This document shows, piece after piece, positions 6,251 to 63,642 of a DNA stretch of 64,000 nt. The stretch spans positions 86,464 through 150,463 of the forward strand of contig JAHBBC010000047.1 in NCBI GenBank assembly GCA_019915015.1, read 5' to 3'. Numbering within the stretch: position 1 is the stretch's first letter; every line of letters begins with the position of its first letter. Made by a program: the position numbers and the translations under genes. The notes beneath the pieces are model-generated. The model had not been told where the DNA came from. It ran no database searches and saw nothing but the letters and a program-made list of their open reading frames with translations. The DNA is from Auriscalpium vulgare. Its lineage: Eukaryota; Basidiomycota; Agaricomycetes; Russulales; Auriscalpiaceae.

Positions 6251-6253
6251 ATA

Positions 6254-7380: not shown

Positions 7381-7445
7381 CTTGCTGGGAGTGGGCCGGT
7401 GCATAGCACGGCAAGACGATTCCCTGCCCAGGGTTGGATTCTATA
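7381..7445 (+). repeat. CTTG terminus of element D with subterminal ACGATTCCCT motif
   Basis: The boundary is placed by loss of similarity to B after CCTCTGAA. The subterminal motif at 7411-7420 is followed by CCCAGGG, so the region CCCTGCCCAGGG can also form a stem. It lies only 87 bp from the stop codon of the protease exon. Confidence 0.65.
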
Positions 7446-7467
7446 AGGTTCAATGGATATTTTTATG

Positions 7468-10400
7468 TTAATAGATATTGCTATATATAAGTACACTTGC
7501 TTTTCTACCTCTACAAGAATATATGTCATTAATAGCTGATATTTTACCATCTTCTATGCATGATTTTCCTGTAGATATCCCATCATGATACCAGAGAGTA
7601 CCATTGTCTGTTACAAGACGTACAGTGAAGTGTGCATCACCATGGTATACAATGCCTTTTAGTCTATAGGTGAACTTGTCATCCCCTTCACCTATTGTCA
7701 TAGTATGCTTTATTTTCAACTCTGCCACATTATGAGGCAGAATAACCACAAGAAATGGAGGGGGTGGATTGGGAAATCTCACGCATCGAGTAAGGATATG
7801 CTGACATGTTACACATCTGTTACCTGCCCTTCTAGTCAACCTCTTTTTCAGCTCAGCTGCAATGGTCTGTGGGACATCATTGCTTAACGTCCAAGAGGGG
7901 GTATTGACAGCATTCTGCTGATTGACAATATTACAATGGGCACATTTGACATCTACTGACATTAAATATTGTTCACTTTTAAATACTTCTTCACACAAAC
8001 TATAGATATCTGTACCTGTATGGTCATCCATAGGAAATGATTGAGCATTAGAAGTATGCAGCATAAGCTGAATTTTATCTCGAGTGCTTTCCAAACTGTG
8101 TTGCTGATGAACCAAGATCCAGTTATCTGAAAGGGCTTTGAATACTGCATTCATATTTGCAGCTCTTTCCATCCAGAGCTCTTGGTGAGTTGTGTATATC
8201 TGATAGAGTATAGTTAGAATACTGTCATATGCACAGCTCCAAGTATTAGCATTCCACACCAGGCCAACTTGTTGAGATCCAGTATTTGCCACAGTGCGCC
8301 TTCTCTTTGTCAGTCGTAAAGGACCTTGATCTTCATTTACTGTGTTGAGAGTGCTTGTTCCCAATGCAGGAATGAGCATATCTTTGTCTATATTATCAAA
8401 CTTTCTCTTTTGTTGTTTTGACTGTCAATACTTGTGACCTTTTTCACTCCCTTATGAGATGTAATTTTTCTCCAAGGTGTGTCATCTTCTGTGGAAGGGA
8501 TCATCATTGGATTAGATTTTGACCACCTGATAGAGTGATGGACCTTGTCAGGGACAACACCTGCTCCACGCCAGCTTTGATACTGCCTTATTAAACTTGA
8601 ACGTGTAGTAGCATTGATAGTCTCTGGAAGCTCCCCTACATAACGCAAGCGAGTGATTTCATCTAATATCTCCAACTCCCGAAATTCCTGCCTTAGATAT
8701 CCAGGCAAGCCACCTGTGATTTTTGAAATATCACACATCTGCAAAATTATGGTACCTTGTAAGCTGGAGCCTCTTGACAGACAGGTGTATACCGAATGAT
8801 GAGTTCTAGAGTTTTTGAGATCAACTACATTAAAGGGTCGTGTGCGGCCCTGTGAGCCATAGTCCGTCATTGCAAAATTTGGCAGTATAGGTACCTGCTC
8901 TCGAGAAACATAGACTGTGCTGTCATTTTGCATTTTGCATTGTATTGGCACCAACTGTTTTGATACAGGAACAACATTCAACGGCAAATCTTTGAGCTGT
9001 ACATCAGTTGGGGGCTTTGTGAGCTTAACAAATACAGTCTCCAGTGTGCTTTTATTATTGTTATGCAAGTTTGCCTTCCAGCCAACAACTGTTCCTTCTG
9101 CACCATTTGTAACACACACTTCAGTTGCCTCATTTTTCTTGATGAGAACAGGCATGCCGCGGCAAAGCCTCAGAGTCCCAGGAATATGCATAGATGCTGC
9201 ATGAGGCAACTGCTGTAATTTATCTTGAAGTGACTCTGGCAAAATGTCTGAAGCTCTGCGAGGGTCCATAAAATTATCCTTCTTTCGTTTGGACACCACC
9301 TGTGACTTCCACTTGTCCACAGATACAAAGTCTGTGAGCTTTTGCTTTGTATCATGAGCAAATTTGACACAGCCCAGTGCATTTATTTGATCACGTTGAG
9401 CATTTAAAGCTGTAATAACAGAGACATGCCTAAAATTAGGGTGTGAAACATCAACCAAAGGATTCTGGGGTCCCACCACTCTTGATCTCAGCAAAGAAAT
9501 ATCATCTGAGGTACAAGCTTTATATCGCATATTCTCAAGTGCAGTGCGAAAGCGACTATCTTCCTCTGATATAGTATTCTGCCTCATATTCTGTCTTAAT
9601 AATACCACAACTGTTGTCTGATGCCACTGTGCCTTTCCCATTGTATGCTTTTGATCGCGTATACTATTTGTTGTACTTAAAACAGTTCCAACTTTGTGAT
9701 TGAATAAAGCAGGTCCCTTAGTATTAATTGGGGGTAATTGGGCAAAGTCCCCAGCAAAAATCATGTTTTTCCCCCCAAATGCTTGATCTTCAATTTGCAT
9801 GGCAGTACTCATCTGGCCACTGATGTTGTATAAATCACCGCAATCAACCATAGATATCTCATCTAAAAAGACATATTTTACATGTCGCAGTCGATCTCGA
9901 ATGGCTGTCATTGTGCCAGCAGACTCATTCACGCCACTGCCAGATGTTTCTCCGCCACCTCTAAAGCCAAGCACAGAGTGGTAGGTTGATCCAGAGACGA
10001 GAGCAGCAGCAGACCCTGTGGGAGCTACTATCAAAAACAGGAAAGACTGCCCACGTTTTTCAAAGAACGCAATAAGAGCTTTTATCACTTGTGATTTCCC
10101 TGTACCAGCCATGCCCCCTACATGCATCTTCAGCTGTGAGGCTGTATCATCAACAGAATGGTTAGCAATAATACTGAAAGCACGTTCTTGCTCTTCATTC
10201 AGAGTAAACTGTAAACATGTCTCAGCAATTAAATCTTGATCCCTCTTCTGTTGAGGTAAGAATGATTTGAAGAGATAGGCATAGTCTACAACTTGAACTT
10301 TATTTGCAGTAGATATAGACTTTCTGAAAGGCCCAGTGGGCTCTTGATCACTATTCTCTGTGCCCGTCATCTGCACTTGTACTTGGTTTTGCTTTTGTGA

Positions 10401-13400
10401 TAAAACATCTGCCTTTTTATCAGCTAACACATTCTTCCAACCTGATGCACTATTGCTGTTTCCATCAATAAATTCAGGCAAAGCTTCTGGATCTACAGAT
10501 CCCACATCTGTGGGTTTCATCCACCCACTAGCCTCTAGTACATTCTCAATTTGTACCATCTGAGCCATTTTGTTAGCCGTTTGTGGCCCAATCTCATCCC
10601 ACTGGGATTCAAGATGAGACACCAGATCAGGTATGCCCAAGTCAGTCCCCACCAGCTCTTCATTATTTTGAGTATCAAGATCATATGTATTGTAGCCAAA
10701 TATAGGATGTACAGGGTTCTCTGCTAACTCTTTTTTTCTTTTTGCTGCAAAGTCATGTCTAGCATCATTGCACTCATATTTTATGTTGCAAAAACTGATT
10801 ATTTGATGATGCCTTGATGAGAAGCTATGAGAGGCAAATGCATCTTCCCATGATACATTTGGTGCCTTCAAGTCAGCCCCAGATCGCCACGGAGAGAATA
10901 ATGCAAGCATTGTTAGATAATAATCCTCAGTATTACCATGGTCTTTTCTTGGCAAAGTTCCCCCCACAAGGCAAGGCACATGTGCTTTATCATCTGAGTA
11001 AACTTTGATACAGTGTGTTTTCCATTGGGGATGGTCATATAAAAACTTGTAAATTGGCTTTGTCTTTCTCTTTGTGCCCTTTTTCCTTTTCTTTGCCCCA
11101 TAGTCATCATCACTACTATCTATATCATCTAGATCTAACTCATAATCATCATCGTCACTACTATCTTCTTCTTCTTCTTCTTCCTCCTCATCGCCATCGG
11201 TATCGCTGTCGTTTTCACTATCACTATCATTATGATTATCATTGTTATTGTTCATGTTCATGTCATTTGTAATATTCTCATTTTCATTTGCCAAAGGCAT
11301 TGCGGCATCAAAATCCACCAGAGTTGCTTGCGTAGATGTCATATCTACCATATCAATATCCCCATCAACATCTTCACCAGGCACAACTTTATCCTGTTCA
11401 ATCACTAGTGTGATATTTGGATCCGTACTGTCACTGTTAATATCATCACTCTTATACTTGTCCTTTGCAGTAACAGTTTTACTATTCTTTGCTTGCAGAC
11501 TTGACATTCTTACTTTATGTGCTCTAGACATCCAGTCATATAGACACCATGACTCAAACTCCATAGGTCGGTAAATGTAATCTGAAATAGGTGACAGGGC
11601 AATGACTGTATCTTCCGCTCTGTTTAGAACTACACGGTCATCTTTCTCTTCATCTATGTCTGAAAATGACCAGTAGGTTTTTACTTGATTGATGAAAGAC
11701 TTCCAATAGAAAGTCTTAAATTTGAACATTGTGTAGTGGTCAGGGTGGCCCAGAATGTACATGGCGGACATTGGAGCCCCAATTTCTTGTTTTACAGTTA
11801 AAGCATTTACTACTTTTACAATGATTTTCCTAGCCTTTTCAATTCTTGTGGCATCTCCATTGATAAACTCAGAATTCCTGTTAAATATAGTCTTTATGGC
11901 TTCCAGCATTGTACTTGTACGCAATGGAGTTTTTGTGATATAATCAGTAATATATGCAATACTAGACTTGATAGCTGTACCAGAAAGCAGACTTGTCACA
12001 TCTGTATTACAACGCATTAAGAACGATACCAATGGGGTGACTGTATTGAGCCAAGCCTCACCTTGTTTCATCTCTAACAGGCCTTTATCTATGTCAATCA
12101 GTGTCTCTGCGTGAACCTCACGAGGAAACCTTGACTTGCATGAAGGATATCGTCGATTTCTGCACCCTGCATGACATGTGTGTCTATTAGACCGGAATAA
12201 TATCTCATTCACAGTGTCCTTGAAAGATGTCCACCAAGATTTGGAGCTAGAGCAGGCTATGCAATTGACAGTGTCAGTAGTAATGTGTTCTTTGCAGGAA
12301 GGTGGGGGAGCTTCAGGTACTGTCATAGTAGGATCAGCCCGAGTATGGTCATTGAAAGCTTTTTTATCCATCATATCAACTACCTGTTGCATGCTGTTAT
12401 CTACAAACTCACCTTGATGAGTAGATTCCAAGTATTCCACAAGTGCTTTTTGAAAGGCTGAGTCATTCTCCATTATGCGTTCTTTGATCTGCTGAGGTGA
12501 AAGGGCACTTTGTATCCATAGAAGCATATGCAAATGAAGAGTGAGACGACCCTGTTGCTCAACTGTTCCATAATACCCTGAAGTCTTGCCATAAAGGCCG
12601 GGATGACCTGAGCCAACACCCAAAACATGCTTAATAAAAAGCTCCACCATAACCTTAAAAAAACGGGCACCTGCAATAGGATTGTTAGCAATAAGTCTGT
12701 ATCTTTCACTATGTGTTAACACTTTGGGATAAATATGAACATCCGCATCTGCAAAGTACAGTGCAATTGGGTGCTTAATGTCTGTAGGAGAAAAGGTGAT
12801 AAACCATGATGGCGCTCCTAGCCAGATGATCAGGGACCATATTTCATTTCGCATGAATTTTTTGTTGGTTGCAGAGCCTTGCACATGATGGGCAACATGA
12901 TCTAAGTCGTTAATCATTTGATAGACTTGCTTCTCTTCATCAGTTTGGGGACGGCTCCTGTCATCCTCTTCAAGTCTTGAAATTAAAGTGTCTAATACCT
13001 CTGGCTTGATATTCATTATTCTATCTGCTATTTGAGGAAAGTTAGTTTTACTAGCAAGAAGATAGCCACCCGTTGAACTCTTCATAATCTGACTGTGGTT
13101 TAAGGCAATGAGAGGAAAAAGAGGCTCCAATTGGAAACGCTTGTCATAGTACATCAACATTGCTCTCTTTCGTGCTGTATCACTTACCACCCTTAAACCA
13201 TTTGTATTTGAAAGGCCACCCAGGCCGTAAGGAAACAACCACGGAAAAGCAGAGGGGTAAAGTTGAGGATTTCCCCATATAGACTCAGCTGCCTCAGCAT
13301 GTCCAATACCCAAGACCTTCTGCCCTTGCTTCAGATATTTCATCGCCAAGACCTTCCGCTCTTTTCCCGACTTTTTGTCCAGTTGCTCTCCAGTCAAGGT

Positions 13401-14984
13401 ATGGACGACGAAAGGACACTGCCCCTCAGTGGTCCCATCATTGTCTTCATCCTGTTGTACGGCTAGGTTTTCAGAGTCACTTTCTAGAGGGGGTTGTCTG
13501 TAGTCAACAATTACTGGAGGCATGTCTTCCGGATAGTCTTCAAGATTCTCATATGAGATTGCCAGATCAGCATAGTCATAATGATTAAGTTTCAACCATT
13601 CCAGTGCCTTTGCTACTTTGTTTCTTCTTACTAACATGGGGGTACGCCTATATTCTTTCTCGGTAGGTTTAACAGGACCTATATAGATAAATGCAATTAC
13701 CTCATCAAGCTCCTCCTTCTTGGGTGGTAAAACATGATACACTTTTGGCATAGGTATCTGATACATAACAGTATTTGCACGCATTTTATAGTGGCCTGAT
13801 GTGTGAACTTTAACAATACAAGCGTTATGACTGACACGGCCAATTAGTAATTTTTCCACAAAAGACAAACCCTGCAGCTCAGGTGGAATAGGCCCAATCC
13901 AGTTTCCATTTGCCAATGCATGCAAAGGAAGTTTGTTTTTCCTCAAGTCTCTTACACAGTTCCGGCATACCATATCACAATTAGGAGCAAACAAAGGCTC
14001 TGTTAGGGGACGGATTGGATCCATGTCACATGTTCTTGTCTCTCGCGAGATTGTGGGACTGTCACTGGTAAGTAAGGAGAGATCCACATTTGATTCAATG
14101 TCTCTCCATGGTATGAGAGTCTTTGATAAAGTCAAAATGCCACAGATCTTGCATCCTTCCTCTTTGATCATATCAAACTGTATGTCCTTGCAGTAGTCTC
14201 TGATGATCTTTTCCTGTAGACTCTTAGAGGCAGGCTGTGGAGGGAATACATTAGTATCTTCCTTTTGACCCTTTTTGTTCTTTGATGTATGCTGAGATTG
14301 TTTCTTGACTTTGGCCCTATGCAGCTGACTTTTTATAGTGTTCGAGAGTCTGGGGCCACCGCAGTATCTGAAATATGTAGAGGCACACAAGCAAGCTGCA
14401 CAGCTGTTACACTGATGTGATTCAATTGCTGTCCGAAGTGAAGCCAAGTCATCTTCCCGGTGCACTTTAATATCATGTGTCAGACATATATCCAGCAGTT
14501 CTTTTCTGCTCTGTTTTGTTAGCTTAGCTATAGGCATGTGAACCTCTAGTAAATCTGACTCAGATATGTCTGTGGGCCGAATACCATGACCAGCAAAGCG
14601 GAATTTTGAACCGATAGGAAAGTCTTCAACTGCAGCATTGTTATACTGTTCCAATTCTGTAGCCATCCAGAGCGATACGCCACCCCCGATGAGTTCTGTA
14701 TTGACAAAATGATATTGATGGGGAAAGATATGATATTGCATCGCGGCCAGGGCCAGCAGTGTGGTCAAGACCATGAACACCAATGTGGTCCAGTAATTAC
14801 TCAGACCCCATTGGGTGATGAACACCATTGTGTAAGATGGCCACTGCCACTGTTCTAACAGCCCTTGGGCTATCTGAAGTACAAACTGTATCCTAGTGTG
14901 ATATTCAGGGATCATGGCAATACAGTGGGAGTGTGAAGGTCGTATGGTAGTGAAGAAACAGATAGAAGACAGCAAGTTCAACAT
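7468..14984 (-). CDS. Helitron/Helentron Rep-Pif1 helicase with C-terminal USP-like protease
   Basis: This is the transposition protein. A single 2,198-codon exon (14984-8388) holds, in order: a hydrophobic N-terminus of doubtful reality (Met107 at 14666 is a better start), a SAP-like helix pair (about 153-175), a Cys cluster, a DUF6570-like region, a Helitron-like N domain with the HUH motif LHLHMLLW (about 815) and the two-Tyr motif YITDYITK (about 1010), an acidic linker (about 1245-1290), and a Pif1-type helicase: GMAGTGKS (about 1620), FLDEISM (about 1705), GDFAQLPPI, YTCLSRG (about 2065). A further 303-codon frame (8379-7468) has a Cys box NTWSCAYDS, two CxxC pairs and a His box GDAHFTVRL...WYHDG, typical of ubiquitin-specific proteases. 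A 44-nt GTATTG...ATAG intron (8431-8388) would join the two in frame. No AP-endonuclease domain was seen. Confidence 0.85.
8388..8431 (-). other. Predicted 44-nt intron joining helicase and protease
   Basis: On the minus strand GTATTGACAG opens and TTTGATAATATAG closes this segment. Its removal places ACAAAGATATG in the protease frame and skips the helicase stop at 8388-8390. The alternative is two separate proteins, with the protease starting at ATG 8379. Confidence 0.5.
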
Positions 14985-15317
14985 TCCAACATGTCACGTG
15001 CACATTAGTTAATATATTCCCACGCCACATGAACTTTTGCATCACTTTACCCCAAGTATCAGTGTTTGAATTTACGGCTAGCATCTTCATCATTCTGTGC
15101 TTGAGTCCCAGGAGGGTGATTTCCAGGTAGACGCTTCAGAGAAACCAGGCTGCTCATGAGTGCAAAGACCCCCGACTGCTAGAATATCACAGACAATTTA
15201 CGAGCTCATTGGATAGTGTACACTCTCATGGAAATATAAATCAGACGGCAAAGGGGCAAGACATTGTGCATTATGCATACGTTAGACATACTTTGTAATA
15301 GGTGATATAATATATAA
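14985..15317. other. Gap upstream of the Rep-helicase gene
   Basis: Here lie 333 bp between two minus-strand genes. A TATA-rich run (GATATAATATATAAC, 15303-15317) could serve the helicase but is about 320 nt from the first ATG. No other gene was seen. Confidence 0.35.
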
Positions 15318-18300
15318 CTACTCTGACCCCTTCGGAATCACCAGGATAATGATACCAGAAATATTGCAGGAAAGGAGCCGGTTACCCTCTGCCCTTTTGC
15401 TCTGGCTGGCTGTGACTGTATGCATGAAGAGACAAAGCGAAAGTGGGGGAATAGGCTCGCGCCATAAGGGATCCTGTGCAGGGCATTGAGCAAGGAAAGC
15501 ATGGACAGAGCCTACGCGATCCTTCGACCCCGACTTGAAGCGACGGGTGGCGTCAAAAACGGGTACTGTAGAAAGCGAGAGTGAGCGAGAATTAGAAAGC
15601 ACGCAAACCAGACACGTACTCTTTGTGTCCGCAGCCAGAGTCCGGCGTTGGTAGAGCATGTTGCAGGACTCATTTTGCTTCATAGTAGCCGAAGACGTCA
15701 CCAACAAAGACTTATCCAGTGGACGTGCAGTGGGCTGTGACTGGGATGCTGACAGTGGATGTTAGTGTATGAGCGACAGGGATGACAAACAATGGAAATA
15801 CATGATGGGGTGCTTCCGGCAGGAACACTGTACGTCCCAATTTTGAATGTCCCCTCGACACCCAAAATAGGAGTTAAGTTGGGACCAACAAGCCTGTCGT
15901 ACGCGGCAGCAGCCAACTCAATCTCTTGAGAGATTGGGTACATGCTCGCGCTGGCGGTGAGCTTGTCATTGACCACCACCGGAAAGTTCAGAGTTGAGAA
16001 CGCAAGGAAGCCAGGCATCACGGACAGCGTCAACTTGTCGAGTCGAGATGCGCCCTTGCGAATGATGTCGGTATACAGCCCCGTAGTCCGTGTAGAGTAT
16101 AAATCGAGGTTTGCACGTGCGGGGTTGAAGATGTTCGATGTCGCGTGAGATGAGAATGTGATGACCTTGACAATGTCACTGGAAACCAATATCAGACTGT
16201 AATTGACCCCTCCATGGTGACACAATATGTACCTTTTAATGACCTTGGGATACATCCCATTGTCCAGCATGGCAATCTGTACGGAAGACCACATCCCAAT
16301 GAGAGGTGAGTGCCTGGAATGGAGTGAGCTGAAGAAGTACAAATTGATTGACATCTGCTCACTCTCTCGGTGGGAGGTTATGGTATGTTCCCTGTAATAA
16401 AGGTTCCTGAAGGTCTTTGCGGAGAACTTCATTGTATGCTGGTTCACTAGATCTTCATCATATGAGCATTCAGGAGGAGACTGAACAATGCGCCAAATGA
16501 GCACGTACACTGGCACAACATCCTCGGTGGTGTCGTCGACATCATCAGGATTTGCGTCGGTGAGTTGCCTTCAGTGCACTTCTTTAGCATGTAACATGTA
16601 GTCCAATTGAACAGGACGTACTGTGCAGGATGTTCTCCATTTGACTGGGGCTCAGGCGCATCATCATGATCTACGTAGACCAAGCTTGACTGTGGGCGAT
16701 CAACCGCCTTCCCCTTTCCTGTGGCCGAGCGTCGCTTCCTGTATGGAACTTGATTAGATCAAGTGAGCGTTGGTTAACGAGCACTTACTTTGGCGGCTCG
16801 TCATCACTCTGAGACTCAGCCCTCTGATGAGAGCGCTTGCTGCCCGGTTGAGTGGATGGAGGGCTACAATGTCATGAGCTGACAGATCATTGACTGTAGA
16901 GAGGAAACATACGGTTCACGATGATACCCAGCCGAGACCGCATCATCGTCACTACCATTGGCATCTGAAGAGAATGATATCAGACCAGGGGAAGAACGGA
17001 CATAATGAGAGTGTATACCATCATTTCCGAGATTTGCCGCATTGTCAGCCATTGGCACAGGAGCAGCAGGATCAAGGACAGGTGCCATACTGTCGGAGAA
17101 GCCGGCAAAGTCTGAGAACGCATCTGAATGGACACATGAGTACAAAAACCAGCTCTCTCACAGAGGAAAGGCAGAATAAGAACAAACATACCATCGCCAC
17201 TAGCTTCCAGGGCATCATCATCAATATCCATAGGCATGTCGTCCGGAAGGAGACCGTCCGACAACTGAGCATTCTCCGTGTCGACAAGATCATGCTCATC
17301 ATCAGCATCAACATCAACATCCAATTGAGCTGCACGATCATCGGAGAGCAGGAGATGGTTGTCATCTGCAAAGATGTCGGCGAGAGCAGGTTGAGGCAGC
17401 AGCGTCTGCTCCGGGTGGACATCCTCCATGTCGACGTCGGCCGTAACAATAGTAAGCCTCCTGGGAAGCAATCAGAATATGATCAAGCTCAAAGGGAGAA
17501 AACACACTGTGACCGGGTGCTTTACCACCAGTGGACATGCGTCCCGGCTTCCGTGCTTTTGCATTTCTAATTGCACTGTCAACGAGAAAATGCATGAGAA
17601 ACAAGGAGCAAAACAGACAGGACAAAGGGGTACAAACAGCAGCGAAGCCGCAGGCGTCCGGGCATGCGGTCTGGCAAGAAAATACATGTTAATATATTGG
17701 AATGATAACATAGACAGCAACCGTACGTTGCCACCGGAGAAGGAGACTCTGCAGAGTATGTTGCCGCAAGAGAAGCAGATGAATCTTGACTAGATGTTGA
17801 TGGAGCGGCAGGAGCAGACACCGGGGCAACAATTGGGCGACCAGTGCGTCTAAGAATCAAGAAATAAGAGCAGGCCCACAAATAGAGCAGACTACCTTAC
17901 CGTCCTGCACGTAACTCCGGACTCTCTTGGATATCCGGAATGACAGGCTTTTTGACCGTGCGCTTGGCATTGACCTTGATGATAACATCAGGGATAGGTG
18001 CCGGAGTTGCAGCAGCCTGAGCGCGGCCTCTGGTCCTCATCGGACGGGACACCGCAGGAGATGCGGCTGGGGCACGCACGCCAGCAGACACCTTCGAGTT
18101 GGCCTTGGCCTTTGCAACAACAGCAGCCGCCCTGACTGTAGCAGTCAAAGCGGACGCCGTGATCGCAGCAGAAGGCGCAGAAGCATCGACCGTGGCAGTT
18201 GCCGCAGAGGTCTTGACCGTGCCCACGGGTGCAGAGGACTTAGCCGTGCGTGCCTTCTGAAGGCCCCTGTAATAGGATGTGAATATGTGTATGCCAAATG

Positions 18301-21885: not shown

Positions 21886-21904
21886 TATACATGGTAGTCG
21901 CAAC

Positions 21905-28364: not shown

Positions 28365-30110
28365 TTGTGAGCGGACGATGCACGCATGGCGAACAGGAGC
28401 TTACCCAACATAGCTCGCGCAATGTCGCGCGCCTGGTTGCCCATGCGACCACCGGCCTCAAAAGGAGTCGGCCCGAGGTATGACGCACTTTTCGGATGCA
28501 CACAGCAGTGCATGTTGAAGTGACGTCATTCCGCTCCACGCAGTCTGCAGGAATGCAAGTCCCCATCCGTCTTCATGTCTTCGCAAAGTGACTTGGGCTG
28601 GAGGGCATGGGTACCTGCGCGATAGCCGGTGAGATTCTGAAAGGATACTGCTCAGAGGTACAACTCACTTTTCCAAAGCAATGGGTGGTGCGTGTTGAAG
28701 CGACGTCACTTGACAACGCGCGCCTACAATTTGACCACATTGAGGGCATCGTCCGTGTCGCGCATGCGCCGCCAAGCCCTTGTGCACGGCACAGTTGGGC
28801 CTGCGCGAGGCAAGCGTGGCTGTTGCGTCCGTGCTCGTCGTATAGATGCAGTGAGGAGGTCGCGCTTCGGGTTGGAAGGGTCCGGACCACGCGGTGCATG
28901 TGCGGCAACGACGGGCTGGGAGACAAAGAATAGGTAAGCCAAAGAAACAGTGGGAAAAACAGACAACGTACCAGCCAAGCACGTCCAAGCGAGTCCGCAC
29001 ACTTGCGCCGCGGCGGATGTTGCAACAAACACAGCGGCACCGAAGATAGCAGCTGTCCAAGTCGCAGCACAAAGGCCACGCTGCGAGGCGTCCAGCGGTG
29101 TTGTGTCGACTTGAAATATTGCCATGCCGACGCACGGGGTGTGATCAAAGCGCGCAGGGTCGCAACGCTTGATTAGCGGATGTGAGCGTTAAGCACCGGT
29201 TGCTGCACGACCTCCGAATTTGAACGCGTCCCGGCGACCTAGATTGGATTGAAAGATCCCAGCGCACCAGCGCAAGGCATGGGAGATGCCGTGGTGAGTG
29301 ACTGCTGCGAGTAACCCCGCCAGCAAGCCCGCGCGGTGGTGTTTGAGATGCAGGAAGGCGACATCGGCCGTGGAGGGACGGGAGGTAGGCTCTGATGGGC
29401 GGTGCTGATCATGTGTCGCCGAAGCGAGCTCCGCTGCCAAGATAGGAACTGAGCCATTTGTTCGCCCTTGCAGGTCCTGCAGCGAGAGGGATCACGTATG
29501 TCAGGCAATGTTGATGAGAGTATGATACAAATAGATAGCTTACTTGCGCCGTTCACGAATGCAGAGAACCACAGAGCGAGCTGGACGAAATGTTGGGTAA
29601 GCCCGAGCCCGGAACATGAAGACAAGCTACTTACAAAGCCACACGTTGCAGGACCGAACATTATGTTGAAGCGGCACGTCTTGAAGAAAGGAGGCTTGTC
29701 ACAGTGGATGGGAGATCGGCACGGGGAGCAGGTGCCGCGACGGATCTTGGTGCGCAGGAACAAGACACGGGCACCCTTTCGCTAACACACAGACAACAAG
29801 TCGAGTGTGGTCGCAGCCAGGGCGCGAACGCGCTCGTGTGACTTGAATGATGACTTGTTGATGAGGGAAAGGGGCAGTGTGTCGGGAGGTAGGTAGGTCC
29901 TCGAGCGCTCGGTCTTGCAGGTGCTCGGTGTCGTATGCGGAAAGGAATCAGACGCACCTTCATTGAATGCAATGGGGCGCACCCACTTGCATTTCCAGAC
30001 CAGCTCCGACGCCCAATGACAATGATCATCGAAGATATAGCATGAAGACGAGGATCTGAGGGAGCTGGATAAAGGCATGCGTGAGACCAAATCATTGATG
30101 ATAAACACAC
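28365..30110. repeat. Segmental duplication, copy 1
   Basis: It matches 32680-34060 in direct orientation. Shared stretches include GCTTACCCA(A/G)CA(T/C)AGCT, TTTTCGGATGCACACAGCAG, GGTCCTCGAGCGCTCGGTC and GACACGGGCAC. Similarity is patchy with indels, so the duplication is old. Confidence 0.65.
28740..29125 (-). CDS. Possible exon of a small membrane protein
   Basis: ATG 29125 opens MAIFQVDTTPLDAS followed by a hydrophobic span (WTAAIFGAAVFVATSAAAQV) that predicts one membrane helix. A GTACGT...CCCAG intron (about 28971-28916) follows. The next exon ends at a stop near 28735. No family is recognised, and a pseudogene or chance frame is possible. Confidence 0.25.
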
Positions 30111-30727
30111 AGACACGTACTGAATGACAGCAGAACGAAACCTTGACAAGACAACAGAGATCAAGGAGAGTTGCAGGGAAGGAAGCACAGTTGTGGAAGG
30201 GGAAGGTAGAGAAAGCGCGAGGTGCTTATCAATCAAGGATCAGTGCGTGCTCATATGGGATCGTGGGAACATATCTCACCCACAGTCATGGGCTGCAGCG
30301 ACCGTTGGCCTCTCGTGTCCCCCTCTCTCGCCCTCTTCGTCGTGGCACTACGCCATGATCGTCGTTGTCGTACTGTGCGCGTTCAGCGTCAGGTATGTGC
30401 GAGGTCTGTTGATATGAGACAATGTGCTTACCTTTGCGATGCAGGCCGAGCCGTCATCGTGCACCTCGTGCGCTGCGCGCGGCATGTTCGCTGTCTGCCG
30501 GTGCCTGCTGTGCGCGTCGGTTGTCAAAGGTATGTGCGACATCCTTGATCTGAACCCGTGTGCTTACCTCGAGCTTGCGTTTTCCAGACCTTCCTGTGAT
30601 CGCCTATGCATGTACGTGCTGCCTTGTGTGTCACTGTGTTGCGCTGACGTGCCGCTTCGTGCGCGCGTGCGTCCAGACCGTCACCCTCCGCTCGCCAGGT
30701 CCGCTGCTCTTTTTAAAAGCACGTCTG

Positions 30728-32105
30728 CGGCGCCCGCCGACGCTTCAAGATGCTGCGCACGGCCCCTCTGCACATCATCGCGCTGCCCGCAGCCCCAGGG
30801 CAGCGGCCTGTCCGCCGTCCTGACGCCGTCATCTTGCGGCCACGATCTTCGCGCCCGCGCGCCGCCGGCCGCGCTGGAGCCGCCGAGTCAATGCAGAGGA
30901 GTTGCGGGGGTGCTAGTAGGGGTGTGCGGTGCCCGCTGATGCCCTCCACCCCTAGACGCCACCTCTGCTGTTCTATTGGGGCTGGACGCCGTCTGGAAAG
31001 GGCCAATCCGGTGGAGCGTGCTTCGGAAACGCGCGCGCACGTCCAAAGCGCGTCTGCGGCGCCCGCCGACGCTTCAAGACGCTGCGCACGGCCCCTCTGC
31101 ACATCCTCGCGCCGCCCGCAGCCCCAGGGCAGCGCCCTGTCCGCCGTCCTGACACCGTCATCGTGCGGCCATGTTCTGCGCGCTCGCGCGCCGCTGGCCG
31201 CGCTGGACCCCCCGAGTCGACGTGGAGGTGTTGCGGGGGTTCCAGGAGACGAGCACGGTGCATACATCCGCGTGGGCAAGCCGTCAGCTGTGAAGATCTG
31301 GCAGCATGTCGGTTATTCAGCGGGCGCGCACGGATATGGCTGCAACTCACCAACGACGTGCCCCACGCCGACGCGGACGGGTGCCCGCAGACGCCCTGCG
31401 CCGCTGGACGCCGCCTCCACCGCCAAACAGAGCGCTGGACGCCGTCTCAAAATCCCTGTTTGGCGGGGAGGCGTTTTCGCAAACGCATCCGGGGCGCCCG
31501 CCGACGCTTCAAGATGCTGCACGCGGCCCCTCTGCACACCCTCGCGCCACCCGCAGCCCCAGGGCAGCGCCCAGTCCGTAGTTCTGGCAGCCTCATCGAG
31601 CGGGAACGATCTTCGCACTCGCGCGCCGGCGGCCGCGCTGGATCCCTCAAGTCGACGCGGAGGTGTTGCGGGGGTGCTAGGAGGGGAGTGCGGTGCATAC
31701 ATTAGCGTGCACAAGTCGTCGGGCGCGGAAATCTGGCCATACATCGAATTTTCAGCGGGCGCGCAGGAAAACATGCATAACTCACCTACAACGTGCCCCA
31801 CGCCGACGCCAACGGGTGCCCGCGGATGCCCTCCACCCCTGGACGCCGCCTCCGCCGCTAAACGAGGCGCTGGACGCCGTCTCAAAATCCCTGGTTTGGC
31901 GGGAAGGCGTTTTCGAGAACGCGTCCGGGGCGCGCGCCGACGCTTCAAGACGCTGCGCACGGCTCCTCTGCACCCTGGCGTGTCGTCCACAGCCCCAGGG
32001 CAGCGCCCTGTCCGCCGTTCTGACGTTGTCATCGTGCGGCCACGATCTTCGTGCTCGCCCGCCGGCGGCTGCGCTGGGGCCTCGAAATCGACGCGGAGGT
32101 GATGC
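30728..32105. repeat. GC-rich tandem array, four ~330-440 bp units
   Basis: The word GCCGACGCTTCAAGA(T/C)GCTGC recurs at about 30736, 31068, 31500 and 31937. Each is followed by GGCCCCTCTGCAC-like and GCAGCCCCAGGGCAGCG words. Period lengths are about 332, 432 and 437 bp. Long open frames in several frames are a by-product of GC content. Confidence 0.8.
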
Positions 32106-32679
32106 TGCAGGATGCAAGACTGTCGCGTCCGTTCGTGCGGAGAGCGGGCGCAGTCGGTGGATGGGGCGAGACAGTGTAGCGCGCAATTGTCGCGGCTGGC
32201 GGAGCGGACGGACAAGTTGGTAGAGTTGACGTGTGGTAGGTAGACATGGAATCCACGGCTGGGCGGGCGAGTGTGTATGTGAGTCGAGTCGGGTCGTGCG
32301 ACGGGCGATAAGCGCGGACGCGTCGCGAGCGGGCTGGTCTTGAGGGCCTTCGTGCATGCACCGGATGTGGCGGCAGAGGGAGGTCCATGGTGCGCAGGGC
32401 ATGCTCGGTCATCCCGTGCGTCAGCGTCGTCCATGTCCGCGAACGAGAGCCGAAGGAAACCGCAGATGGACGGACAAGGCTCGCGCTACACACCTGGGTC
32501 GCTGGTGGGTGATGAGCGTGCGGCGCGAGGGCCCCTGACGGTAGGCATATGCAGTTCTTGGCCTTGGGTTGGGTGCGATGGAGGGGTGGGTAACAGGGGT
32601 TGTGACGGTGGGTGGGGCGATGGTCGCGGTGTCGTCGAGTATTGAGAGCACTCAGGCCACGTGGCCAGTTCCTGAGAGT

Positions 32680-34060
32680 GGACACAGCCTCATCAGCGGA
32701 CGACGCACGAGTGGAGCAAAAAAGCGAGCTTACCCAGCACAGCTTGCGCAACGTCACACACATGGCTGCCCTCGACTCTGTGCTCTGAATCCCCCGCGAG
32801 GCTTGTGAGTGCGCGCCTACGGCACGTCGACTCTCTTCCAGGTGATCCCAGCGTCGTCGAGTGGTCAGAAGTGTGATGGCGGCGCACACCCTGTCTTGCC
32901 AGCTCGAGGGTGAGTGGATCTGACGACATATTTTCAGACTTCATTATTGTCTGACAATTGAACATAGCCTTGATCAAGTGCAGCGCTTCATCGCTGAAGT
33001 GGTCCGCAGCCAAATGTTGAATGCTGCGGATGGACAATGAGTATCCCACACGCAATAGAGGCCTGAGGATGCACTGACCAAGCTCGAAGCTACCCGGTGA
33101 TGTCACCACCGGCTTCGGAAGTAGCCGGACCCGAGGTATGACGTACTTTTCGGATGCACACAGCAGTGCATGTCGAAGTGACGTCATTTCTCTCGACGAG
33201 GTCTGCAATGATGCAAGTGAGTGTCTACCTCGAAAAGAGACGTGGGCTGGAGGGCACGGGCACCTGCGGGATAGCCACTGAGTCATGCTGGACGCTGTGC
33301 GCAGATGCCCAGCAGGTCAGGATGCGGCGCGATGGCAACGTCGGCGGTGCTTTGGAAGGCCGGTGAGTAACAACACCACTTGTTAAGACACTGAGATACC
33401 CACATTTTGCGCTTAGCTCAGGGCTGCCCAAGCGGTACAACTTTTGGCGTGGTACGTGGCTCCGGATCTCACTGCAAAAAAATGTGAGACGAACTGCCAA
33501 CTGATGCTATTACGTCAGCATACCCCGGAGCGATGCGGACGCACAGGCGCAGTGAGAGCGCACGCGAGGACGTGCTCTTTGGAATGCACTGTTGTAGATT
33601 GAATGCCGGGTTTTGTTGTTGTGAAGATAGGGCCGGGGCACTTTGATCCACGCAGTTTCTTGGTACGTGTGGAGGCATGAGACACGGGCACTCCAGAGCT
33701 AACACGCAGACAGCATGTCGAACGTGATGTAGCCGGGGCGCAAACACGTTCGCAGGCCCTGAAGGATGAGGCGTGGAGAGAAGGATGATGTCGAGAGGTA
33801 GGTGGGTCCTCGAGCGCTCGGTCTTGCTGGGCTCGGTGTCGTATATGGTCTGGAATCGAACGCACCTTCACTGAATGTAATGGGCTGCACCCACTTACAT
33901 CCACACATGTAACCAAAGCGCCAGGACACTGGAAGACTGGAGACAATGCCTCAAGAAGCAAGGAAAGTGCAGAAAGGAGACGATGAGACCCAAGTGAGCA
34001 GGCATACTGACGCAGACACACCTCATAGCTCTGTGAAGACCGTAGTGAAGCCGACAATTT
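32680..34060. repeat. Segmental duplication, copy 2
   Basis: This is the partner of 28365-30110. The pair flanks the GC-rich array, as if an ancestral unit duplicated around it or the array expanded between two copies. Confidence 0.65.
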
Positions 34061-34509
34061 GGTAAGGGATATTTCAGAGTGTTGTGCTGGTGGAAGATTG
34101 ATGTCGACGAGGGAGCTAGATGAAGAGACACGTTATCTGAGCAGAGATCACGCACCGTGGGAATGTGCACTTCCACAAACATCACACTGCTGCCCTTCAC
34201 TACACTTGATCATCCCTTGATCATCCTGCTACGCAAATCCACCTGGGCCCCTCAGTGTACTCAATCACCAGGACACTGAAGACACACCGCTCACAGACAG
34301 AGAAGGATAGGTATGTCTACAATTCATCGAGGGATTGATCAAATGACGAACAGTGACCGCAACGCAGTGTGCAGATAACCGGGCACCTGCAACTGGGCTC
34401 AGAGGTTGTAGGGATAGGAATCAGTGTGCACGGGGGTATTTGGTGCTAGAGGCAGCAGGTGCGCAGCAATCTGTCGAACCTGCAGCCGACTAACAAACAC
34501 GCGCGGCCC

Positions 34510-36622
34510 CTGCAGGATTGCTTTTGGGCGGTTCGGACTATGTTCTCTGAGTGCTACCACGCCTGGGCGAGCGCGCCGAATTCTACACAAGGCCTTGCTG
34601 CTTTGAATACAACAACTATCTTTGAGCAACGCACTTCTGACCTGGCAAACATCCATGCTGATGGTTGGTGGGGCGAACACGAATGGACAGCGTTTCCACA
34701 GCCCTACGACGCGACAGCACCATATCTTGCATACATCCCACTCCCAACAGGAGACCACAGCATTCAATTGGATGTGGAAATCTTGTGGAAAACTCCTCTC
34801 AAACGCGAGATGGTGCAGACATCAGAGAAACCCCGCCTCTACTCGCTAGCTGCCTCATTCCTCGGACGACTTGACAAACGTGTCGAATGGGCCAAAGACA
34901 TGAAGAGGCAACTCGAGCGCGCCTCATTGACGGACATGGCAGAGACAATCACCATCCCCTACGACGCTCTTCTCCGTGCACGTGTAGCTCGCGCCGACAT
35001 CCGTGACGGGTTGCCAAGCTGGAACCAGCTCTTGATGTGCGTCAGAGCAGCCCAGCGAGGACTCCTGGAGGTGACGGCCTTCATTCTTTGGTGGCGCGAC
35101 ATCGACCATGGTGGGCACGACAATGCTATCACAGGAAACGCACGGAGAGCGATGAGGGGCAGCATTGTGGCGGACAGCTTTGCTTACCGTGACATCTCGC
35201 GACATGGCTACCCGGTATTCCTTCCTGTGGACCTTTCAACGGTTGTGTTGGACTTCAAACTGAGGGTCAGGGGGACCAAGCGAGGAACGCGCGTACAAAC
35301 AGATGGGAACGAACACCGCGGTCCTATATTAGAGCACGACGGCCCGCTTTGGTTCTACCCGCCTACAACCGATGCGCACGCGAAGTTCGAGGCGGCCGCA
35401 AGAGGATACGTGGAACGTATGGACACATGGAAGCCATCCGCACAATATCAGAGCGTGAACAGAAAAGGGAAAGGTAGGCAGTAATCTGTGCAACGTGCGA
35501 TCAATAACTCACAGATATCCCAAAGACCGCAGATGGGTACGGGAAGTGCAACTTCCAGAGCTTCGACGCTGGCTGGACGATCGGCCTAGTGATCGACCAG
35601 AGTACCTGCCCAGCCCGGTCGCCATCTGGGACCAAGCTATGCTGCACGCTTGTGATCACCGCATCCTCAAAAGCCTGCAGGAACCTCGCAGGTTCGATCT
35701 ACCACCCCTGCGCCTTTTCTGGGGCCGCGCAGAGGCGCTGCAAACAAAATTCTATTTGCGCGCGCAGCAGCTGTACGCTTCAAGTGAACGAAGGATAGGA
35801 GCCAGACAACCAGGATTCACAACGCAGGGGTGGCGCGATTTTCTCAGTGACACATACTGGAAGAAAGCAACACCAACGATGGACGAACACTTCGACCCGA
35901 CGAGCGACTACATTTTCAACAGTGAGCTGTTCTACCAGTTTGGGTCGACGACTTTCTTCACACCTGAAGACAACATACAAATCAAGGCCGGTCAACACAT
36001 ACCCATCACGCCGATGGCCTGTGGATGCCAGGCAAATAATGACACGTTCGACAACTTCGACAACCGTGCAACATTCATCTATAAGCTCACACTTCACTCT
36101 TTCCTCCTTGATCTTGCACAATTGGACGCGGAGTTGGGTCTTGGCGGATCAGATGCTGGAAGGAACCTGGCACAGGCCCATGCATGCAACACGCGCAGCG
36201 AGCTCCTGATGCGTTTTGTCTTCTTCAATGGGGTGGACCGCTCGCCGGCGTGGTCCACGGCGGATGTAGCGGATAGGATGGGTTGGCTGTTGGTATTGCG
36301 TGACATGGTCGCTGCGTACCCAGTCCAGAAACACCTGGCAAGTGACACAACAGGTTTCGATCCGAAAATAAAGAAGCAGGTGGAGAACATGACATGTGAA
36401 CCGGAAGCACATGTCCAGCAGGTAGAGATATATTTACTTGCTGTCCTCGCTGATACCATGAAGTCTACGCTTGGTATCTATCCACCACCGCTTCTATTGC
36501 CTCCCAAGTACTATACCTTAGCGTGCCATACCCATCGCCGCAGTCATGTATGAGTCTTATTTCAATGCAAGGAAAGCTACAAACAAGTTGGACAGGTGGG
36601 GTTGGCGTGAGAACTCGTAACT
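34510..36622 (+). CDS. Cargo gene 4: two-part hypothetical protein near the right end of D
   Basis: The function is not recognised. The first part is open to 35483 (MFSECYHAWASAP at 34540, then HEWTAFPQPYDATAPY and RRAMRGSIVADSFAYRD). The second continues from about 35515 to 36550 (RRWVREVQLPELRRWLDD, then FGSTTFFTPEDNIQ and KYYTLACHTHRR). GT...AG borders at 35474-35514 or 35481-35514 are short for an intron, and only the second restores the frame, so a small frameshift is possible. Residual coding (NARKATNKLDRWGWREN) runs on to 36622 in another frame. An acceptor at 34506-34512 suggests an upstream exon that I cannot place. Element C is inserted 20 bp after the last stop. Confidence 0.5.
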
Positions 36623-37714
36623 TTCAAGACGACCCTTGGTTACTTGGGGTTAATGGGCCAATGCACGCATGGCAGTACAATTACTCTTCATCATTTAGGG
36701 GGGAGGGGGGCTTGGCCATCCAACATACAACTGACTGCCTGGTGTAGTTATGTCCTTTTTGAATATGTTGGAGATATAATACTTGGGGTTAATGGCTCTG
36801 GCTCCGCGTGCAGGAAAGTGACTCTGTGACTGTATTGAGATGTCAGGGCAAAGTTGTGGTGATGGGCACCCACATGTAGTAGGGTGGTAATGTCACATGT
36901 GTCCAAAACCAGATCCCTAGTACAGCACTAAAGGGGATATTGTAATGTGTGTGAGCAAGTGAAAGAGACAAGTGAGGGGCAGTGCAAGCGCATGGGGAAT
37001 GGTCAGTGCTGTCAAGAAGTGTGGAAGAGGTGTCCTACAATGTGGAACAAGACAATATGAACGGAATAGAAGACAATGGAGATGTGGCGAGCAATAGAAT
37101 GCACTCTGATATAGGAGGGAGTTGTAGGCAACTGCTGCGATGTTGTGACACTGCAATTTTTCAGAGGAATGCACTGGAATGTGTGTGCAATGGTTGGAGT
37201 GGTGGAGCAATAATTAGAGCACTGGCACAATCACAGAACAATTGGGATCAGAGAAATGCAGCATGAGCTCGAGAGCTGAGCTGTACTATGGTCGGAGGAT
37301 AGGCGTGACTGTGGAGGTACTTGGCAGTCACAGAGTTATCGGAGTAGTGTGGCGCACATGTTCTAACAACAATCTCGATGATCAAAATGTCATATGAAAT
37401 CCTGCCAAGATGTGACAGCAGTCTGTGCTCAAGGTCATGTGGTCGCAGTCAAAACAATGTGCGAGTGGTTGGATGACTGTGTGTGGGGCATGCAACTGAG
37501 TCGATGGTCTGAGTGTGGTGTCCAAGGTATGATTCCTATTGCGTGAATGCCCTGCGAGACTCCAACGGTCACAACTCTGGCTCCAATCTTGCGAGCGTTG
37601 AGAGACTAATTGGGTGGTTGGAGCTTGTCTGCGCAACTTTCTGACCTCCGGAATTGCGTGACTGTCGGCTTGTCAAAAGTGTAAACATTGGAAAATGATT
37701 GCCTCGCAGCGAGG

Positions 37715-38953
37715 TGACAAGCCTCGTCCCGCGCGCTGAGATGAATTCTTAACTATCTTTTTGCAGTTTCAACCAAGTCCTTGGTCACATTACCTAGGCC
37801 TTCCCGTGCCACAATGAGAACACTCTGCCGACTCCCATGCTACTCGCACTAAGCACCCGACCGCATGCCCAGTCGCCATACGCTAGCCAGCACAACATTT
37901 CCCATGCCTGTCATGGCGCATCAGATTTGCATTAGACTTGCACAGCCTGGTCGCACGACAGCCACACCCGGCGCTACACAGTGCTGGTGCTCCCACGCCA
38001 TCCGAGTACTGCCCCAGTTGCCCATTGTCCGCACCACTGTCCCGACCGCTCCAACACCCTCTGACTCAGCGCTCCCGACATGCCCGCTCCCCTCCAACAC
38101 ATCCTAGCATCTATCGACACATGCTACCATCTCATATTCATGAGCGCCTTGCGATTGACTCGCAACCCAGCCACTCCACATGTTGGAAGCATTGCCACAT
38201 TCACGATCGGAAGACGCAGCCTTGTGTCACCATTATCGGACCACCGCTATCATGCTCAATATGGCACGCCTTGTCTGTTCCCATGCTCCCCGAGGCTGTT
38301 TCCCACAGTCAACAACAGAGCGGATCATTTCCCGCGCTGTTTCCTTGTCCTTTGACAGTGCAGATCACTCGCTCGACATTGTCCCCTGCCTCGTTCCTCG
38401 TTGTCTGACTGTCGCATGACTCCCCCGCATTGTCCGTACCATTTGATATGATGCTGCTATCTTTCCTTTGTCTTTCTGATGTCTCTGTACTTACTTGATT
38501 GGACACGCACTGTATTTGTCACAACATATAAATAGTTGTCGGATACTCTGTGCAATGCAAGTTACGTTCCCCCTCATCGCTCCCAGCACATTTCATTTGT
38601 GCACTCTTGTCGCCTTCGTATCATATAGCGGTCAACACCGGTTGACTGCTCTGGCGCCTTAGCCTCAGCCATCGTCTTAGCCTTTGTTCTCGCTTCCTGT
38701 CTCATCGCTCCCATCTTGTTCCATCCTTGTTGCCTTTGCCCGAGTCATCGATTGCAGTCGCGTTGCAGTCTTCCGGCGTCGCTCGTCTTGTCACTGTCGC
38801 GCCCTCAATCGGAACGCCATAGGTTTGATCGGAGATGGTCGTTGCTTACTCCGGGACTCCTGACGCTCGCTCGCACACACATCAACACCTCGGTAGCGCT
38901 CTAGGGATCTGGTCGACTCTGCTGTTTACTGCCCTACCTGGTGGTGTCCATCA
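37715..38953 (-). mobile_element. Old solo LTR of the Gypsy family, CpG-depleted
   Basis: It begins TGACAAGC at 37715 and ends GTGTCCATCA at 38953, the reverse complement of the LTRs at 49159-50449 and 62343-63638. The TATA element is conserved (TATAAATAG, 38527-38535). Differences from the full-length LTRs are dominated by CG to TG or CA changes. No internal retrotransposon sequence adjoins it. Flanks CAGCGAGG and GCGGAACG give only a weak 4-bp target duplication. Confidence 0.75.
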
Positions 38954-39220
38954 GCGGAACGAGGAATATCATCAGCGTGAATGCACTTGGTAGATCTTGG
39001 TCTACACACAGGGAAATATGCACTGGCTAATACATCACAAGTCCTGCAGACTCCAGTACCCTAACCATTGTGTGTGCATTTATTGTAGCTTTCTGACAAT
39101 ATATAATATGTGTATATTGTATCAGGGAAAAGGCAAGAATTTGATAAAAAGAGCAAAGTGTATTGTAGGGTAAGAGGGGATAGAACATTGATACAGACTA
39201 TCCACAGCTGTTCAATGAGT

Positions 39221-39310
39221 ATAGCCTTCTAGTCTAGTGGTTACTGCTCTTAGACTATGTTATGTACTCATAAACTGCATGCTGTGGGTTCAATTCCCTC
39301 TATGTGCGCA
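39221..39310 (+). ncRNA. tRNA-like sequence in element C
   Basis: It shows A box TAGTCTAGTGG and B box GGTTCAATTCC with a weaker T stem. It is the inverted counterpart of 6165-6250. Confidence 0.5.
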
Positions 39311-39939
39311 TTTTTAATAGTAAAAATATTAGGCCCGGGTATTGTAATAGCCGGAGTAGAGAAAAATGACGTAGCAACCGGATCAATTGGTAGAATGCCC
39401 TCTAAAACTACGTCATCTTTCTCTGCATCAACCGTGGGAACTTTCTACCAAAAATGGAAACTCTGAGGCCTCTTTTTCTGATCACAGAACAATTTGAATC
39501 ATGAGCATATCAGTGTTAGTTAGCTTGCAAAACGCAAAATACTCGCAGACACGAGTGTCTTTTGGAGCGAGGATGTAGAAAAGCATTGGGCAGAAGCTGC
39601 TTAGCTAAGAATTACTGAATTTGGCAGGTGGAACGACGCGACTTGACCGTGTGAGACCATTTCCTAAAGCGACTTTCCTGACGGGCACTTTTTGGCCTGA
39701 CTGGTTGGAGAAAAAAACGATTAAGAGTAATCGTAATTACCCCGTTCCCCTTTGTTACCCACCCAAGTACTATACTCTGGCATGTTCGAGCCATCGAGAG
39801 AATCATGTTTAACTGTATAAATTCGTATCTTACACTGAATTGAGGGAGACGAGAAGCGTGGGAACAAACAACTATATATGGGGAGGAAGATGAAAGTTGC
39901 ATGGGGGTCCAAAAAGCGCGACTGGTGCTTACATAAGAA

Positions 39940-39957
39940 ACGATCCAAGGGAATCGT
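39940..39957 (+). repeat. Terminal hairpin of element D
   Basis: ACGATCCAAGGGAATCGT: 5-bp arms ACGAT/ATCGT, one mismatch, one further pair, loop AAGG. Its complement begins ACGATTCCCT, the motif found 30 nt inside the left end of D. It is followed by AACAATTGCAG, which matches the B shell. Confidence 0.65.
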
Positions 39958-63638: not shown

Positions 63639-63642
63639 CCGC

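What the first reader, a model, noticed from the sequence alone, without database searches (positions are those of the whole stretch)
7381..39957. 32.6-kb Helentron-like element carrying a large intron-rich cargo
Paired ends related to those of smaller elements A, B and C bound a block containing a Rep/HUH-Pif1 helicase gene plus at least four other genes, two with every examined intron intact. Capture of gene fragments by Helitrons is known; whole multi-exon genes in a T|T-inserting Helentron-type element of this size would be unusual and could be a basidiomycete counterpart of large cargo-mobilising elements.
Basis: partly seen in the sequence, partly recalled or inferred. Interest (0 to 1): 0.88.

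Follow-up and report, generated by a model that had tools for sequence, protein, structure and literature searches.

The report
Giant multi-gene rolling-circle fungal transposon
A 29-kb mobile DNA unit in a fungal genome (likely a mushroom-forming species), predicted to copy itself by rolling-circle replication, is present whole at two sites and carries a set of genes, several with predicted introns, that are conserved between its diverged copies; this matters because a 2019 review puts fungal elements of this kind at no more than about 14 kb.

Summary
Window 7381-39957 is one insertion. A second copy, D', lies inverted on the same contig: 29.5 kb with 7 substitutions, homology stopping at the proposed ends, different flanks. 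Copies of the interrupted repeat give an empty site. Without a later 3.1-kb insertion the unit is 29.5 kb; a diverged sister with both ends (C10) is 28.4 kb.

The interpretation changes twice. First, the genes are not fresh host cargo. At 13 of 21 RepHel loci scored, a relative of the 723-aa ORF lies upstream on the same strand. Between D and C10 four to five further genes keep order and strand; one (orfE) is full-length in both, with a 52-bp intron and dN/dS 0.10. They look like element genes. Second, the endonuclease that defines Helentrons was not found; the ends are Helitron2-like (asymmetric inverted repeat), with TT before the 5' end in 22 of 22 and T after the 3' end in 18 of 18 junctions held.

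orfE also has a relative in a KDZ transposon nested in D', so accessory genes probably pass between transposon classes. Gene functions are unknown; both AlphaFold models failed. Verdict: a new variant of a known kind, a giant Helitron2-type element with a conserved multi-gene core.

The parts
7381..39957 (-). Element D as it stands (32.6 kb), element orientation = minus strand; original unit 29.5 kb
   Evidence: D' copy C47:6591-49200, homology ending at both ends; empty site in R copies
39931..39957 (-). 5' terminus: TT|ACGATTCCCTTGGATCGTTTCTTATGT, short palindrome
   Evidence: 63 exact matches to a 27-nt pattern genome-wide, reversed-pattern control 0; TT before it in 22 of 22 distinct junctions held; fold -2.9 kcal/mol, matched by 17 of 200 shuffles
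7381..7441 (-). 3' terminus ending in CAGCAAG|T; AGGGAATCGT, 35 nt from the end, is the inverted repeat of the first 10 nt of the 5' end (asymmetric terminal inverted repeat)
   Evidence: sequence; 202 exact matches to an 18-nt pattern of the end, control 0; T after it in 18 of 18 distinct junctions held; fold matched by 44 of 200 shuffles
8388..14993 (-). RepHel ORF, 2201 aa: DUF6570, Helitron_like_N (HLHMLL at aa 820, YITDYI at aa 1014), PIF1 helicase (GGMAGTGKS at aa 1626)
   Evidence: Pfam; motif positions (that these are the HUH, Tyr and Walker A motifs is recalled); PIF1 and Helraiser chains in PDB
7468..8424 (-). C-terminal part of RepHel, in another frame in D and continuous in D' (2508 aa). 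Contains WNANTWSCAYDS, which looks like a cysteine-protease motif (recalled, untested)
   Evidence: 0 Pfam families, 0 PDB matches
15480..16195 (-). orfA: five blocks conserved in C10 (37-67% aa identity), dN/dS 0.149 over 186 codons; one more block at 16812-16883
20758..21683 (+). orfB: gene with predicted introns, tail-to-tail with orfC, conserved in C10; the same stretch is also conserved beside orfC in L043, L045, L047
   Evidence: exon frames assigned by eye
21905..24076 (-). orfC: 723-aa open exon; with itself, 20 loci in this genome (28-100% identity)
   Evidence: no Pfam
24726..26764 (-). orfD: seven conserved blocks (51-70% aa identity, one stop in 467 aligned codons), GT-AG introns of 50-52 bp at matching places in C10 for two of six gaps; may be the upstream part of the orfC gene
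29726..29866 (-). short conserved stretch, also 0.7-1 kb upstream of orfE in the C4, C22, C10, C13 and C52 copies
30000..34380 (.). stretch without counterpart in C10, with a 435-bp tandem repeat (31058-32105); part (31046-31822) is 78% like an array on C12 with units about 10.9 kb apart (possible captured DNA)
34540..36553 (+). orfE: 653-aa gene with a predicted 52-bp intron (35474-35525), also 52 bp in C10; 82.5% aa identity to the full-length C10 gene, dN/dS 0.103; 80% identical to an Auriscalpium vulgare protein
36642..39736 (-). later insertion in D, absent from D': inverted R element containing an LTR-like stretch (37711-38957)
5731..7380 (+). left part of the target element R (smaller Helitron2-like element) that D interrupts
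39958..40645 (+). right part of the interrupted target R

Best explanation
Element D is a giant Helitron2-like transposon, 29.5 kb before a later 3.1-kb insertion, that is predicted to move by rolling-circle replication through its RepHel protein and that carries at least four further genes, conserved between diverged copies, which likely serve the element rather than the host. Shown: the whole unit exists at two sites with unrelated flanks and near identity; a diverged sister has the same ends and gene order, and further copies have the same gene order in part; several of the extra genes are kept by purifying selection; junctions are TT|...|T. Inferred: RepHel nicks at the TT 5' end, the helicase peels off one strand, and the region of the subterminal repeat, 35 nt from the 3' end, stops the copy. 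Inferred and untested: the extra genes act in trans for the element, for example against host silencing or in replication. orfE, which also has a relative inside a KDZ transposon, is the best candidate for a transferable helper gene, by analogy with the TET/JBP genes shared among fungal transposon classes.
For: Second copy D' with 7 substitutions and 14 small indels in 29.5 kb (alignment-edge differences left out), homology ending at both ends; paralogous empty site. Sister on C10 with both ends, 28.4 kb. Two further near-identical pairs, compared at the 3' end only: C22/C4, 1 mismatch in 1873 bp, homology starting at the 3' end with unrelated flanks; C13/C52, 1 mismatch in 684 bp. Linkage: 13 of 21 scored RepHel loci have an orfC relative upstream within 35 kb, all 13 on the same strand, 12 of 13 at 6.5-10.8 kb (naive binomial tail 1e-19). 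orfE full-length in D and C10, dN/dS 0.103 at dS 1.01; orfA 0.149 at dS 2.9; orfC stays open over 684 aligned codons although dS is saturated. RepHel domains and motifs. Junctions TT 22 of 22 and T 18 of 18 held. Two runs (8 and 7) of 3' ends about 1.4 kb apart on C4:632794-655849, as a rolling circle could make. orfE relative in the KDZ insert.
Against: No movement, transcript or protein was observed; introns are predicted. Only D, D' and C10 have both ends located; for the C4, C22, C13 and C52 copies the 5' end was not placed. In C10 the stretch 1044301-1050399 is known only through its RepHel match. D's own RepHel frame is split, and D' orfE carries small indels, so neither copy is intact as assembled; assembly error is possible. 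Eight of 21 RepHel loci lack an orfC relative (seven of these are the 47-51% identical ones), and five of the 13 with orfC have no orfE relative within 35 kb. Fold energies of the two ends are not better than many shuffles (17 of 200 and 44 of 200). The orfC tree does not place D with C10, unlike the RepHel and orfE identities (AU p 0.033, long branches), so the gene set is not strictly inherited together. No empty site was found for D'. The search for relatives of orfD outside elements never ran.
Confidence: 0.83

Rival explanations
1. Large Helitron that recently captured intact host genes and carries them as passenger cargo.
For: The genes have predicted introns. Part of the 30.0-34.4 kb stretch looks like DNA captured from an array on C12.
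Against: orfC relatives lie beside 13 of 21 RepHel loci in fixed order. Gene content is shared with C10 at dS of about 1 or more. Six of the 20 orfC loci have no RepHel scored nearby; whether these lie in elements was not checked, and the planned orfB and orfD searches did not complete.
Confidence: 0.08
2. Segmental (inverted) duplication on contig C47 or an assembly artefact gives two copies without transposition.
For: D and D' are on one 150-kb contig in inverted orientation. Small indels between them could be assembly noise.
Against: Homology stops at the element ends; each copy has a private insertion; D interrupts an R element whose empty form exists. The C22/C4 pair lies on two contigs and shows the same 3' boundary.
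Confidence: 0.05
3. Composite of a small RepHel element and neighbouring transposons that only look joined, with the real 5' end close to RepHel.
For: Nested insertions are frequent here.
Against: No other D-type 5' end lies between RepHel and 39957. D, D' and C10 share both ends and the interior gene order.
Confidence: 0.04

Closest known systems
Helitron2 / FoHeli elements of Fusarium oxysporum (PMC5148889; passages seen)
   Same: RepHel without endonuclease; 5' palindrome; inverted repeat some 20-50 bp inside the 3' end
   Different: FoHeli are about 5-6 and 9-11 kb and insert at TNAT|A where established; D is 29.5 kb, TT|T, with at least four more genes
Helentrons and their non-autonomous partners (PMC4067079; passages and one section seen)
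   Same: No target duplication, flanked by variable numbers of T; subterminal inverted repeats; extra ORFs
   Different: Helentrons have an AP endonuclease fused to RepHel; none was found in D
proto-Helentron-Pi of Phytophthora infestans, about 14 kb (PMC4067079 section 11)
   Same: RepHel without endonuclease plus several extra proteins
   Different: Inserts between A and T with CTAG at the 3' end; half the size; no SET domain was found in the parts of D scanned
HELPO1 Helitrons of Pleurotus ostreatus (PMC4289320; two sections and passages seen)
   Same: Basidiomycete RepHel with orphan cap genes found only inside Helitrons; capB lies with RepHel in other species
   Different: Autonomous copies in its table are 6.6-13.7 kb with one cap gene each (text: one to four); CT(A/T)G 3' ends; D has a larger conserved set
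TET/JBP-carrying transposons of fungi, including Helitron1 and Helitron2 (PMC12730594; passages seen)
   Same: One accessory gene family shared between KDZ and Helitron elements
   Different: No TET/JBP domain was found in the parts of D scanned; orfE has no Pfam family
Starship giant transposons (PMC12289983, PMC11623301: search listing only; PMC13066641: passages)
   Same: Tens of kb, many genes, fungi
   Different: Tyrosine-recombinase captain; D has RepHel and no captain-type Pfam hit in the parts scanned

Membership tests
Helitron superfamily (rolling-circle) | RepHel protein with HUH/Y nuclease and Pif1-type helicase | tested here: met
   Helitron_like_N E 1.2e-30, PIF1 E 1.8e-21; motifs at aa 820, 1014, 1626; PDB PIF1 and Helraiser
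Helitron superfamily (rolling-circle) | No target-site duplication of DDE type | tested here: met
   D' reads TT and TG, C10 TT and TC on the two sides; D reads TT on both, with TT in the empty site
Canonical Helitron1 | 5'-TC ... CTRR-3' ends, insertion between A and T (recalled) | tested here: not met
   5' TT|ACGATT, 3' CAGCAAG|T
Helitron2 | Asymmetric terminal inverted repeat | tested here: met
   ACGATTCCCT at the 5' end, AGGGAATCGT 35 nt from the 3' end; 9 of these 10 nt pair in C10
Helitron2 | Hairpins at both termini | tested here: inconclusive
   5' palindrome present, but fold energies are not beyond shuffles
Helitron2 | RepHel branches with Helitron2 in a tree | not tested
   no reference set was built
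Helentron | AP endonuclease domain fused to RepHel | tested here: not met
   Pfam on both RepHel ORFs of D, no endonuclease at E 0.01
Helentron | Flanked by T residues | tested here: met
   22 of 22 and 18 of 18 distinct junctions held
Starship | Tyrosine-recombinase captain at one end | tested here: not met
   No Pfam family in six frames of 15000-24990 and 26650-36640; 24991-26649 was not scanned; short exons could be missed
Polinton/Maverick | Protein-primed DNA polymerase B and integrase | tested here: not met
   Same scans, no such domain

The most novel reading that the evidence does not exclude
Giant rolling-circle transposons are a lineage of their own in Russulales: RepHel plus a fixed core (orfA-orfD) with swappable modules such as orfE, exchanged with KDZ transposons, so that eukaryotic rolling-circle elements have a multi-gene, near-plasmid or near-viral grade comparable in size to Polintons and small Starships, with core genes for replication, packaging or escape from silencing.
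Probability: 0.35. Interest if true: 0.9.

Novelty: new variant of a known kind. Interest (0 to 1): 0.72.

Why it matters
A 2019 review puts fungal Helitrons at 6-7 kb, up to 14 kb with captured DNA, and maize elements at up to 39 kb with gene fragments, and calls capture of full-length host genes exceptionally rare (PMC6431247, passages). A 28-30 kb element whose extra genes are whole, conserved and under selection is a different case: the genes look like parts of the element. If so, rolling-circle elements in eukaryotes can keep large gene sets, and orphan gene families such as orfE may be transposon helper genes that pass between transposon classes. The near-identical pairs make activity testable in living strains.

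Tried and rejected
Six-frame Pfam scans of most of the interior gave nothing. A 5.8-billion-protein search with orfC scored 7998 candidates and found no relative, but only proteins of 0.55-1.75 times the query length are candidates, so a longer orfC+orfD gene would be missed; the negative is weak. Viral-contig scans with RepHel and orfC found no relative. AlphaFold models of orfC (single sequence, mean pLDDT 37) and of the A. vulgare orfE relative (six rows, pLDDT 38) are too poor to use; a PDB fold search with the latter gave nothing at E 0.001 and is not used. Rfam (window 5000-41000) and tRNA (bacterial settings) searches found nothing. D' flanks gave no empty site: the 5' flank is single-copy and the 3' flank is a high-copy repeat. 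I first read the shared orfC position as strict co-inheritance; the orfC tree argues against that for D and C10, so I speak of a conserved set with some exchange.

Considered and rejected: simple deletion derivatives as the source of the 3.3-kb elements; the one read (L039) shares with D little beyond its ends and a second short 5'-end-like stretch. The orfE counts included 5' non-coding sequence and a stretch in the wrong frame; one search had the C10 exon border one base off; one search replaces both.

Full report
What was checked. The window is C47:86464-150463 of a 51.6-Mb genome in 96 contigs. The nearest protein relative of one element gene is from Auriscalpium vulgare, a basidiomycete of the Russulales, and a KDZ-borne gene in D' is 90% identical to another A. 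vulgare protein over 323 residues, so the host is likely in or near that family. The species is not known.

One insertion. D lies inside a repeat R. R reads through without D in two other places of the window; at 44640-44700 the empty site reads ...cctctgaacaattg.... In element orientation this is caattgTTcagagg, against caattgTT[ACGATT...CAGCAAG]TTcagagg when filled. A second copy, D', spans C47:6591-49200 in the other orientation. D and D' agree over 29.5 kb with 7 substitutions and 14 indels of 1-3 nt, after leaving out alignment-edge differences at the junctions. Homology stops at both ends and the outside sequences differ. D alone has a 3.1-kb insertion, 36642-39736, and D' alone has a 13.1-kb insertion. 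The common unit is therefore 29.5 kb.

Ends. All 22 distinct 5' junctions in the loci held read TT before ACGATTCCC, and all 18 distinct 3' junctions held read T after CAGCAAG. The genome has 63 exact 5' ends and 202 exact 3' ends by pattern, with 0 for the reversed control patterns. Only 100 of the 202 were listed, and my pairing of ends used 30 5' ends and 49 3' ends on C1-C9, so I give no copy number. Small elements of 823-826 bp and about 3.34 kb share both ends. The first 10 nt of the 5' end recur inverted 35 nt from the 3' end: an asymmetric terminal inverted repeat, the Helitron2 mark (PMC5148889, passages). Fold energies do not add support.

A family of giants. On C10, 1023187-1051587 is a sister of 28.4 kb with both ends; I read its letters except 1044301-1050399, which is covered by a 71% identical RepHel match. 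Protein searches place relatives of RepHel, orfC and orfE together elsewhere. Of 21 RepHel loci scored (the first look had 124 candidates, so this is a lower bound), 13 have an orfC relative upstream within 35 kb, all on the same strand; the gap is 6.5-10.8 kb in 12 and 24 kb in one. orfE lies further upstream on the opposite strand within 24 kb at D, C13, C4, C22, C10 and C23; in D' the orfE copy itself is at C47:7973-9003, displaced by the KDZ insert. Five other RepHel loci with orfC have no orfE hit within 35 kb, and one (C4:463060) has one only at 70 kb, so orfE is not universal. Of the 20 orfC loci, 13 are these; C52 has a D-type 3' end at the expected side but its RepHel was not among those scored; six have no RepHel scored nearby. 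C22 and C4 copies are 99.95% identical over 1873 bp from the 3' end inward, with unrelated flanks.

The genes. tblastx of D against C10 gives five stretches of coding sequence besides RepHel: orfA, orfB, orfC, orfD and orfE. orfE is full-length in both (653 residues aligned, 82.5% identical), with a predicted intron of 52 bp in both; a Nei-Gojobori count gives dS 1.01, dN 0.104, dN/dS 0.103. orfD has seven blocks; two of the six gaps hold a GT-AG intron of 50-52 bp at matching places in both copies, and orfC may be its last exon. By the same count on tblastx blocks orfA has dN/dS 0.149; orfC (dN 0.52, 684 codons, no stop) and orfD (dN 0.34, 467 codons, one stop) have saturated dS. The orfB count is not used, because one block was in the wrong frame; one search shows its exons.

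What the genes do. No Pfam family was found in orfA, B, C or E or in the frames scanned; orfD lies partly in the stretch 24991-26649, which was not scanned. Both structure predictions failed. orfE has four protein relatives in the large database: three from A. vulgare (80, 53, 30%) and one from a JGI source (23% over 42% of the query). The 13.1-kb insert in D' is a KDZ transposon (CxC2 and KDZ domains) and carries an orfE relative at 34%. So the orfE family sits in two unrelated transposon classes. A 2025 paper reports TET/JBP genes shared among KDZ, Helitron and other fungal transposons and proposes that they counter silencing (PMC12730594, passages). By analogy I propose that orfE, and perhaps the core genes, help the element in trans. 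This is inference.

Exchange. RepHel and orfE of D are closest to C10 and its group (71-72% and 77-79%, apart from D's own copies), but orfC of D is not: it is 44% identical to C10 and 47-48% to other families. A tree with D and C10 together is rejected at AU p 0.033, with long branches. This suggests reassortment among giants, weakly.

Naming. By the tests made this is a Helitron by protein, Helitron2-like by ends and by lack of endonuclease, and not a Helentron in the strict sense, although the T-flanked junctions match that group (PMC4067079, passages and section 11). Papers searched for the same thing. In their listings I saw no giant Helitron with a conserved gene set; several listings were cut at their maximum, and I read only passages or single sections of eight papers. 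The size figures come from a review (PMC6431247, passages).

Noticed in passing
C47:18511-31632 (L010-L012): 13.1-kb KDZ transposon inside D' with subterminal repeats of about 42 bp, a cyclin-like ORF (Cyclin_N E 7e-9) and an orfE relative.
   Followed up: partly
G000:C4:632794-655849: Two head-to-tail runs (8 and 7) of D-type 3' ends at about 1405-bp spacing, as rolling-circle tandem copies would give.
   Followed up: no
window 41572-48658: Tandem R (smaller Helitron2-like) units of 3.3 kb, 98.9% alike, each with a 1.44-kb insertion (42484-43931 in the first).
   Followed up: partly
window 4117-5847: Long ORF (576 aa, + strand) with Transposase_21 (tnp2), E 2e-13, next to the R target.
   Followed up: no
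window 49159-50451 and 62343-63640: Pair of 98.5% identical direct repeats flanking a retroelement-like block (LTR-like); described only.
   Followed up: no
G000:C2:2541034-2543202 (L042): orfC copy 98.9% identical to D's, 98.7% over 5 kb of DNA, with no RepHel scored nearby: a possible remnant.
   Followed up: no
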